A stretch of 64,000 bases of DNA from Branchiostoma lanceolatum. Taxonomy: Eukaryota; Chordata; Leptocardii; Amphioxiformes; Branchiostomatidae. The stretch is from NCBI RefSeq assembly GCF_035083965.1, contig NC_089727.1, positions 20,029,269 to 20,093,268 of the forward strand, in the 5' to 3' direction. Both the position numbers and the translations under genes were made by a program. The notes under the pieces were generated by a model, which saw nothing but the letters and a program-made list of their open reading frames with translations, did not search any database and was not told the origin of the DNA. This document shows, in pieces, positions 38,601-41,600 of this stretch (within the stretch, counting starts at the first letter, position 1; each line of letters begins with the position of its first letter).

Positions 38601-41600
38601 CCGGGATCTGACGCGATGCGAACTCTTCCACTTGTTATCGCTGCGTTGCGATTTTTCTGTAATGTCCGGGCTTCGTTATCTTTATTCGACGTTGATCAGA
38701 ACCTCTTTAGTTTATCATTATCGATTAATTTTAGTACTGTTGATTTGGACATAGGCAATCGTTGCGCGAGTTTGTTGGCATGTCGGTAACATCCGTAAAG
38801 GGTCCGATCAAGTGTGGTCTTTGATTACTCTCCAAGCAGAGGAGGGGTTTCGGCTGGTTTTTGACGTGTTTCTAGGCGTTTTTGTTGGGCTTTTTACTTT
38901 GTCATTTTTTTTTTATAGCCAACCCATGATACAAAAAAAAAATGGCACAGTAGACACCTCCTTGGATATATCAAGCATCCCAACTGGACAACGCGGCCAC
39001 GGCGCAGCGCGGTGAATTAACCCCCCCCCTCTACTGGGCGGGACCAAATGAATTATCGGACAGACGCTAATTACTTTTAAAGTACCCATTGTTCTAAACA
39101 AGTGATTCTCTCACAGGGGAGTCCCAAACTTAGGTGTGAAGAAGAGATCTCAAAAAACTCCCTTTTGCTCAGTAAGAGTTCTCTTTTAATGGAGACAGTT
39201 CTCTTTCAGGTCTCTGTTAGGCTTGTCCTTTGTTCTGAGTACTCTCTTTGCCGGTAGAGACTTCAAAGAGACTTATGGCTCTACTAGTGTTTGTGTGTAA
39301 CCTTGGTACTGCAGCAGAACCTCTGAATTTTGTATACTGTGTCCTTGACATGCTTTGGACTTGCTTATTTTTCGTTCACTGTTTGAAAATATTTCATTAG
39401 ACTTCAGGAGAGTTAAAGCTTTCCTCTTTTTAAACTTTTTGCAGGGATATGCTGCCCAAAGCTGTGCTGTCTGCTTTCCGCGCCCGCCGGCTGCTGTTCA
39501 ACGGAGGGGAGGACTGCAGTCACAGCTGTCTGCTGTACTGCGACAAGGCCGGGGCACTGCTCCGACATAGCATCGGCATGGCAACCACCAACGAACAACA
39601 GGCTTCCAAACAGGTAGGAATGGAATCGTCTCAAAGTATCGAATTGTTGAGAAAGAAATCTTGTAGTTTTTAGTTTATTGTCTTCCATTTAAACTTACAT
39701 GAATTTTGAGCAGTCTTATTTTACTGATAAAGTTACAAGATGCCACTAGTCTCATGTAAATTATACATTGTTGATAACTAGGAAGGGTAAATACAAAGAC
39801 ATTCGGTAGTTGTACTAAAATGAAGATACGTGTTATTTTCTTATGGGAAAGCTAGTTCAAGATTTAATGTCTTAGCTATGAGGGGAAACTTAGAAGAAGA
39901 GCAAAAGACCTGTTGCTAGGGTGCATTGTAGTTGCATTGCATGTGCACAACAGAAGTGCAATGTAACTGCAGTGCAGCCCAGAGGCAGGACCAGACCACT
40001 ACGTACTTAGGGGTAGAGCAGACAAGAGAAAGGAAAAAAAAGTAATGTATGCGACAACATTAATGGCAAAGAATTAAGGGAGGGGGGTGCGACTAGACGT
40101 TAGACAGTCCCTATGTTGGAGTGTTCCTATTCTTTATTTTGCACCCATTTTCTTACTATGAAACATCTGTCTTGCTGAATTGCACCAATTTCTGAAGTAC
40201 AGCAGAATGCAGCCGTCTTTTTTTGCAGTGCACCTGGAACATGCAGCTGTGCAAGTTCCAGCTGGTGTCTGCAGATGTATGCGGTGCACACCATCTTCTC
40301 TGTGGCTGAGGTGCATTGTAGTTGCATTGCATGTGCAAAAGCAGAAGTGCAATGTAACAGCAGTGCAGCTCAGACATGGTTGCAATGCAAGGGCAATGCA
40401 AGTAGCCTCCAGAGACTATAGACGTATTAGAAATACTGTTTAAGAAGAGGTTATATAATTTTGTCATTTTTTTAGAGTAGATATTTCATAGGATTATGTT
40501 AAGAACCCAGAGTATGCTTATTTTTTTGCTGAATATGTTGTTGAGGAGGTCGTCATATATTGTGGCATATACATTCATTGCATATTTATGAATATTATGT
40601 AGTATGTATACTTAAAATGACTTAAAATCAATGGATATGGTTTGTTGGTCAATTTTTACATTTTTACCATTGAAAAATCAGAACCAATGATAGATATAAC
40701 TAGCGGATAGAAACAATAAATGCTTTATCTTTTTAAACATGCTATTTTACCAGATTATGGTAAATTTGATTTCCAGTTCATAATCTAGCCAATAAGCAGA
40801 CATTTAACATTTTTCACTCCTTTGATGTTCTACAGGCGGTCCAGCTTCTGGTCTGTGATTGGTTACTGTCTACGCGGACGGCGGTGTGGCAGGTGGCGTG
40901 TAATGGCGGGCCCGTGGGCGCCAGCTGCGCCCGACCGACCGAGCTTCACGGATTCCAGGAGGACTTGGCTAGTCTGAGGAAGATCGCACAGGGACTCAAA
41001 CCCGCACTGTCACGGGTAAGTCTAATGTCTTCGAAGTAGCATGCATTAGCAGGTATTCAGAACGTAATGCATATACAGCGATTACCCTGCTATTTAAACC
41101 TATTATAAGTATGACTGCCAAATCTTTTTTGTTCGCTCTGGTCACTGGTAAATGTACAGTCTTGGAAGTAGCATGCATGAGCACATATTTAGAACGTAAT
41201 GCGTATACGGCAATTAACCTTGCTATTTAATCATATTATGACCGCCGAATCTCTTTTGTTCACTTTTGTCAACGTTGCATCGGAGTAACAGCCGTTGCAT
41301 AAGATTTGTCCTTGGACACAACTAAATGAACCTATATACGAGATATTAACCTTAAATACGCAGACATGCCCTTAAATGCGTAAATTCTTGCGACGTGCTG
41401 CATGCATAGTCCAGTGATTAGTGACCGTGCCTCTGGGCCTAGAAGCCGAGAGTTCGAATCCCGGTTGTGTCAGTGCAGTAGGAAGAAAACAACTTAAAGT
41501 TTGATTAATTTAAAGTTGACATGTGGAAACATTTCTGGATATCCCTATAAGCTATTCTTAGTTCCAGTCAAATCTTAAGTGTTAAAATCCTATATTGAAG

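What the first reader, a model, noticed from the sequence alone, without database searches (positions are those of the whole stretch)
39912..40375. Two miR-33 genes in a single intron of the only SREBP gene
Both hairpins have the same mature 5p sequence but different 3p arms and loops, and sit 390 bp apart, sense to the host. Vertebrates have one miR-33 per SREBF paralogue, and flies one in SREBP. Here dosage was raised by local duplication without host duplication. Identical 5p arms with diverged stars indicate selection on the guide strand. That the host association is ancient is established knowledge; the duplication is read directly here.
Basis: partly seen in the sequence, partly recalled or inferred. 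Interest (0 to 1): 0.85.

Follow-up and report, generated by a model that had tools for sequence, protein, structure and literature searches.

The report
Amphioxus tandem miR-33 pair in SREBP
An amphioxus gene for a master regulator of fat and cholesterol carries two copies of a well-known small regulatory RNA in one intron; the copies are real, but the duplication and an RNA product of each copy were already in print.

Summary
Two hairpins at 39916-39982 and 40306-40373 score 72.3 and 72.8 bits against Rfam mir-33 (cut-off 50). They share an identical 21-nt 5p arm, 390 nt apart, sense in one 1,222-nt phase-0 intron of an SREBP gene spliced here from 15 exons, whose bHLH best matches SREBP-1A, then SREBP-2. 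It is not new. PMC3763532 (2013) lists 'mir-33: tandem duplication in Branchiostoma floridae'. PMC5650284 (2017) lists, in B. belcheri, both 3p arms letter for letter as bbe-miR-33-3p and bbe-miR-33-2-3p. So both copies are expressed there, an assembly duplicate is very unlikely, and two amphioxus species carry the pair. I did not see the single-SREBP-intron setting in print. The 3p arms differ at only 2 of 22 bases, and 'selection on the guide' is not significant from this pair alone (p=0.18). 'Only SREBP gene' and 'dosage raised' could not be tested. One detail I did not see in print: a bulged site complementary to miR-33 (17 of 21, seed intact) lies 9 nt past the second copy's 3p arm; probably a 3p-arm relic or chance, possibly a self-regulatory site.

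The parts
39916..39982 (+). mir-33 precursor, copy 1 (3p arm identical to bbe-miR-33-3p)
   Evidence: Rfam RF00667 72.3 bits; fold z -6.6; 3p 21-mer at 39959-39979 identical to the published B. belcheri mature sequence
39921..39941 (+). miR-33-5p of copy 1
   Evidence: exact 21-mer
40306..40373 (+). mir-33 precursor, copy 2 (3p arm identical to bbe-miR-33-2-3p)
   Evidence: Rfam RF00667 72.8 bits; fold z -6.0; 3p 21-mer at 40350-40370 identical to the published mature sequence
40311..40331 (+). miR-33-5p of copy 2, identical to copy 1
   Evidence: exact 21-mer
40381..40401 (+). miR-33-5p-complementary element: seed 2-8 and positions 12-21 paired, 3-nt central mismatch; 17 of 21 Watson-Crick; role unproven
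   Evidence: best ungapped complementarity on the + strand of the window outside the hairpins (next best 15); 0 of 2000 Markov simulations of the masked intron and 2 of 60 of the whole window reach 17
39614..40835 (+). host intron, GT-AG, phase 0, 1,222 nt; three coding exons follow it
   Evidence: splice model
27178..42552 (+). SREBP gene, 15 exons joined in one open frame of 1,009 aa (a further exon upstream is likely but was not looked for)
   Evidence: splice model; HLH domain PF00010 E 1.2e-13; bHLH best PDB matches SREBP-1A (1am9, E 1.3e-25) and SREBP-2 (1ukl, E 3.5e-18)

Best explanation
This is the known amphioxus tandem mir-33 pair: two bona fide miR-33 genes made by a local duplication of about 75 bp inside one intron of the SREBP gene. 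Both are presumably transcribed as part of the SREBP pre-mRNA, cut out by Drosha and Dicer, and give one and the same 5p guide, miR-33-5p, which by analogy with other animals represses lipid-export and lipid-oxidation mRNAs alongside the host transcription factor. Shown: hairpins, sequence, host gene, intron, and (for B. belcheri, published) a mature 3p sequence from each copy. Inferred: co-transcription, targets and any dosage effect.
For: Rfam hits and folds; host gene spliced and identified as SREBP by its bHLH; published 3p sequences bbe-miR-33-3p and bbe-miR-33-2-3p each match one copy exactly and the other with 2 mismatches, and none of the other 75 of the 77 sequences of that paper's Table 2 matches the window with up to 2 mismatches; 'mir-33, Tandem duplication in Branchiostoma floridae' in Table 2 of PMC3763532; miR-33 in an SREBP intron in oyster (PMC4138081, passages), fly and vertebrates (PMC5027541, passages) makes the host association ancestral.
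Against: In B. belcheri the two 3p arms were reported to move in opposite directions after poly(I:C) (log2 -2.16 for 33-3p, +2.76 for 33-2-3p), which simple co-transcription with equal processing does not predict. The same paper says bbe-miR-33 was also among the down-regulated miRNAs of another study (Liao et al.; passage), so the fall may not be mere noise. Cross-mapping, analysis effects or copy-specific processing remain open. No reads from the window's own species were examined, and that species was not identified.
Confidence: 0.95

Rival explanations
1. One copy is an assembly artefact or a dead, unprocessed copy.
For: The copies share about 75 bp at high identity.
Against: Loops, basal stems and 3p arms differ, the downstream flanks are unrelated, and both 3p arms are published as sequenced mature RNAs in B. 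belcheri. Both hairpins keep strong folds.
Confidence: 0.02
2. The pair is real, and in addition the element at 40381-40401 is a functional miR-33 site in the primary transcript: loaded miR-33 binds it in the nucleus and alters processing of the second hairpin, as let-7 is reported to do at its own primary transcript in C. elegans.
For: 17 of 21 Watson-Crick pairs with an intact seed and A opposite position 1, predicted duplex -25.6 kcal/mol, the best ungapped site on the + strand outside the hairpins (0 of 2000 intron simulations reach 17). It begins 9 nt past the 3p arm. Copy 1 has CNNC at +16 and +19 after its 3p arm and copy 2 has none within 30 nt. The two copies are reported to respond oppositely to poly(I:C) in B. 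belcheri.
Against: Found post hoc; whole-window simulations reach 17 in 2 of 60. miR-33 has an internal repeat, so an 11-nt tandem repeat suffices. The element is also 16 of 21 identical to each of the existing 3p arms, so a 3p-arm relic explains it. In the minimum-energy fold it pairs with itself. Conservation could not be tested.
Confidence: 0.06
3. The two copies arose independently or by a large segmental event rather than a small local duplication.
For: No homology is detectable in the downstream flank and only marginal similarity upstream.
Against: Same intron, same strand, 68 of 75 aligned columns identical, including shared loop sequence.
Confidence: 0.02

Closest known systems
Amphioxus mir-33 tandem pair (bbe-miR-33-3p and bbe-miR-33-2-3p; B. 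floridae tandem duplication)
   Same: Exact 3p arms of both copies; tandem arrangement.
   Different: The parts of the two papers that I read (passages and one section each) do not state the SREBP intron.
Vertebrate miR-33a (SREBF2 intron 16) and miR-33b (SREBF1 intron 17)
   Same: Same family and host gene family (PMC5027541, passages).
   Different: There one miR-33 per host paralogue, where present (mouse has one in all); here both sit in one intron.
Drosophila and oyster miR-33 in an SREBP/SREBF intron
   Same: Same host association.
   Different: Fly mir-33 is listed as non-clustered (PMC3763532 Table 2); no tandem copy is mentioned in the oyster passages read.
C. elegans let-7 complementary sites in pri-let-7 (Zisoulis et al. 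2012, not held; known here only through a passage of PMC4408804)
   Same: miRNA-complementary element downstream in its own primary transcript.
   Different: There reported as demonstrated, more than 200 nt downstream of the LIN-28 site; here sequence only, 9 nt past the 3p arm.

Membership tests
mir-33 (RF00667) | Full-length covariance match above gathering score | tested here: met
   72.3 and 72.8 bits vs 50, model 1-69 of 69 for both
mir-33 (RF00667) | Conserved 5p guide with the miR-33 seed in the 5' arm of a stable hairpin | tested here: met
   identical 21-mer in both, folds z -6.6 and -6.0; identity with human miR-33a-5p is recalled, from no call
mir-33 (RF00667) | Mature products sequenced from the locus | tested here: met
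   by literature only: both 3p arms listed for B. belcheri, identical to this window; no reads were mapped here
SREBP-intronic miR-33 | Sense in an intron of SREBP | tested here: met
   intron 39614-40835 of the spliced gene, SREBP bHLH
SREBP-intronic miR-33 | Same intron position as vertebrate hosts | tested here: inconclusive
   three coding exons follow the intron here; no vertebrate gene structure was aligned
SREBP-intronic miR-33 | Co-transcription with host and repression of lipid genes | not testable with these tools
   needs RNA data and assays
Sole SREBP gene of the genome | No other SREBP locus | not testable with these tools
   no whole genome held

The most novel reading that the evidence does not exclude
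The second mir-33 copy carries, 9 nt past its 3p arm, a sponge-like site for its own guide. Through it the shared miR-33-5p made from both copies would control processing of one of them, so that a tandem pair with identical guides is regulated asymmetrically (in line with the opposite reported responses of the two 3p arms).
Probability: 0.06. Interest if true: 0.6.

Novelty: already known. Interest (0 to 1): 0.2.

Why it matters
The pair is a tidy example of miRNA copy number rising without host duplication in amphioxus, and the duplication is published. What could still be useful: a natural case of two hairpins with one identical guide but distinguishable 3p arms in one intron, so copy-specific processing can be read from 3p counts, and a self-complementary site next to one of them that invites a simple conservation check.

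Tried and rejected
Whole-genome search for further mir-33 copies: no genome is held. A third mir-33 copy in the intron: of 28 rows with E up to 10, four are mir-33, namely the two hairpins and their antisense readings (48.5 and 48.1 bits, just under the cut-off of 50); the rest are other families below their cut-offs. A third miRNA just upstream of copy 2 (40206-40300): z -3.8 for a 95-nt stretch cut by eye, but -2.5, -1.6, -1.0 and +0.4 in the four fixed 85-nt windows over it (which scanned 10 of the 14 introns of the model and scored only the 20 windows with energy of -24 or lower); no family match above cut-off; not claimed. A miR-33 site after the SREBP stop codon: one seed 7-mer CAATGCA at 43367, about 0.16 expected in 42553-44300 from the window's rate, with duplexes of -23.6 kcal/mol at 43348-43354; it lies past an ATTAAA at 43184 and may be outside the mRNA; not claimed. 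In mouse, miR-33 does act on the Srebf1 3' UTR (PMC3863899, passages). Pfam gave nothing at E 0.01 for 9 of 10 single exon frames and only HLH above cut-off for the joined protein, so the SREBP call rests on the bHLH and its PDB matches plus one continuous spliced frame. Papers seen in passages that did not settle anything: PMC2728532 (section 9 also; it reports 17 amphioxus clusters in a figure not held), PMC8789304, PMC5006418 and PMC8704543. Species of the window: not determined.

Full report
What is there. Rfam finds exactly two mir-33 precursors above cut-off in the 64 kb, at 39916-39982 and 40306-40373, both on the + strand, at 72.3 and 72.8 bits against a gathering score of 50. Both fold far better than shuffles (z -6.6 and -6.0, 0 of 200 shuffles each). 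The 21-nt 5p arm is identical in both and has no further exact occurrence in the window on either strand. The pair is 390 nt apart, start to start.

Host. I spliced 15 exons (27178-42552) by GT-AG borders, chosen by eye, into one open frame of 1,009 residues ending in a stop; a further exon upstream is likely but was not looked for. The bHLH matches SREBP-1A (1am9, E 1.3e-25) and SREBP-2 (1ukl, E 3.5e-18) far ahead of other bHLH proteins, the next being E 5.9e-08. The hairpins lie sense in the phase-0 intron 39614-40835, which is followed by three coding exons. Whether this is the only SREBP gene was not testable, as no genome is held.

How the copies differ. The alignable unit is 39910-39983 against 40300-40374, with 7 differing columns of 75: three in the basal stem, none in the 5p, two in the loop, two in the 3p arm. 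Beyond it the downstream 100 bp shows no similarity (153 of 300 shuffles as good) and the upstream 100 bp is marginal (12 of 300). So the duplicated unit is little more than the hairpin, or the flanks have decayed. Zero of 21 changed columns in the 5p against 7 of 54 elsewhere is not significant (Fisher p=0.18); the case for selection rests on the family's deep conservation.

What was known. PMC3763532 (passages and section 8 with Table 2 read) lists mir-33 'Tandem duplication in Branchiostoma floridae', as annotated in miRBase. PMC5650284 (passages and section 7 with Table 2 read) lists caatgtaactgcagtgcagcc as bbe-miR-33-3p and caatgtaacagcagtgcagct as bbe-miR-33-2-3p in small-RNA libraries of B. 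belcheri. Each matches one window copy exactly and the other with 2 mismatches; none of the other 75 of the 77 sequences of that table matches the window with up to 2 mismatches. Whatever species the window comes from, two amphioxus species have two copies by these sources. Independent duplication in each is possible but not likely. The host association is older: oyster miR-33 is in an SREBF intron (PMC4138081, passages), and fly and vertebrate miR-33 likewise (PMC5027541, passages). I did not see it stated that both amphioxus copies share one SREBP intron. The searches were 25 of 32 papers listed; 20 of 509; 1 of 1; 8 of 8; 20 of 29; 4 of 4; 10 of 259; most of these papers I saw only as listings, the library is open-licence only, and supplements were not available.

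A result that does not fit the simplest picture. In PMC5650284 the two 3p arms change in opposite directions after poly(I:C): -2.16 and +2.76 in log2, and the paper notes that bbe-miR-33 was also down in another study. Two hairpins in one intron should rise and fall together unless their processing differs. The analysis used TPM and DEGseq on whole animals, three replicates per group, and the two arms differ by two bases, so cross-mapping or noise may account for it. In the window, copy 1 has CNNC 16 and 19 nt after its 3p arm while copy 2 has none within 30 nt; that CNNC aids Drosha is recalled, not from a call, and such a short motif is not rare by chance.

A small detail I did not see in print. 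At 40381-40401, 9 nt past the 3p arm of copy 2, the sequence TGCAATGCAAGGGCAATGCAA is complementary to miR-33-5p at 17 of 21 positions: seed 2-8 and positions 12-21 pair, with a 3-nt mismatch between. It is the best ungapped + strand site outside the hairpins (next best 15). None of 2000 Markov simulations of the masked intron reaches 17, but 2 of 60 simulations of the whole window do. It was found after looking, the guide has an internal repeat that makes such matches easier, and the element is identical to each 3p arm at 16 of 21 positions, so a relic of a third 3p arm is the simplest reading. A let-7-like self-regulatory site (PMC4408804, passage) is the boldest reading not excluded; I give it about 6%. 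No search was made for earlier reports of this element by name.

Verdict. The finding is an already known miRNA pair; interest is low.

Noticed in passing
37391-37473: Perfect palindrome of 40 bp per arm with a 3-nt loop in the 6-kb SREBP intron (RNA fold of 37370-37500 -66.6 kcal/mol, z -13.2); probably a MITE-like or palindromic insertion, weakly hit by unrelated miRNA families below cut-off.
   Followed up: partly
40381-40401: miR-33-complementary, sponge-like element just after the second mir-33 hairpin.
   Followed up: partly
24954-26278: 126-bp minisatellite, 10.5 copies at 96% match, open in long frames on both strands; lies upstream of the SREBP exons found.
   Followed up: no
40206-40300: Hairpin-forming stretch directly upstream of copy 2 (z -3.8; -2.5 to +0.4 in fixed windows); no family match above cut-off.
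   Followed up: partly
44220-44294: tRNA-Lys (CTT) about 1.7 kb after the SREBP stop codon (Rfam tRNA).
   Followed up: no
63452-64000: 272-bp tandem repeat, 2 copies, whose consensus reads like ankyrin repeats (by eye, not tested).
   Followed up: no
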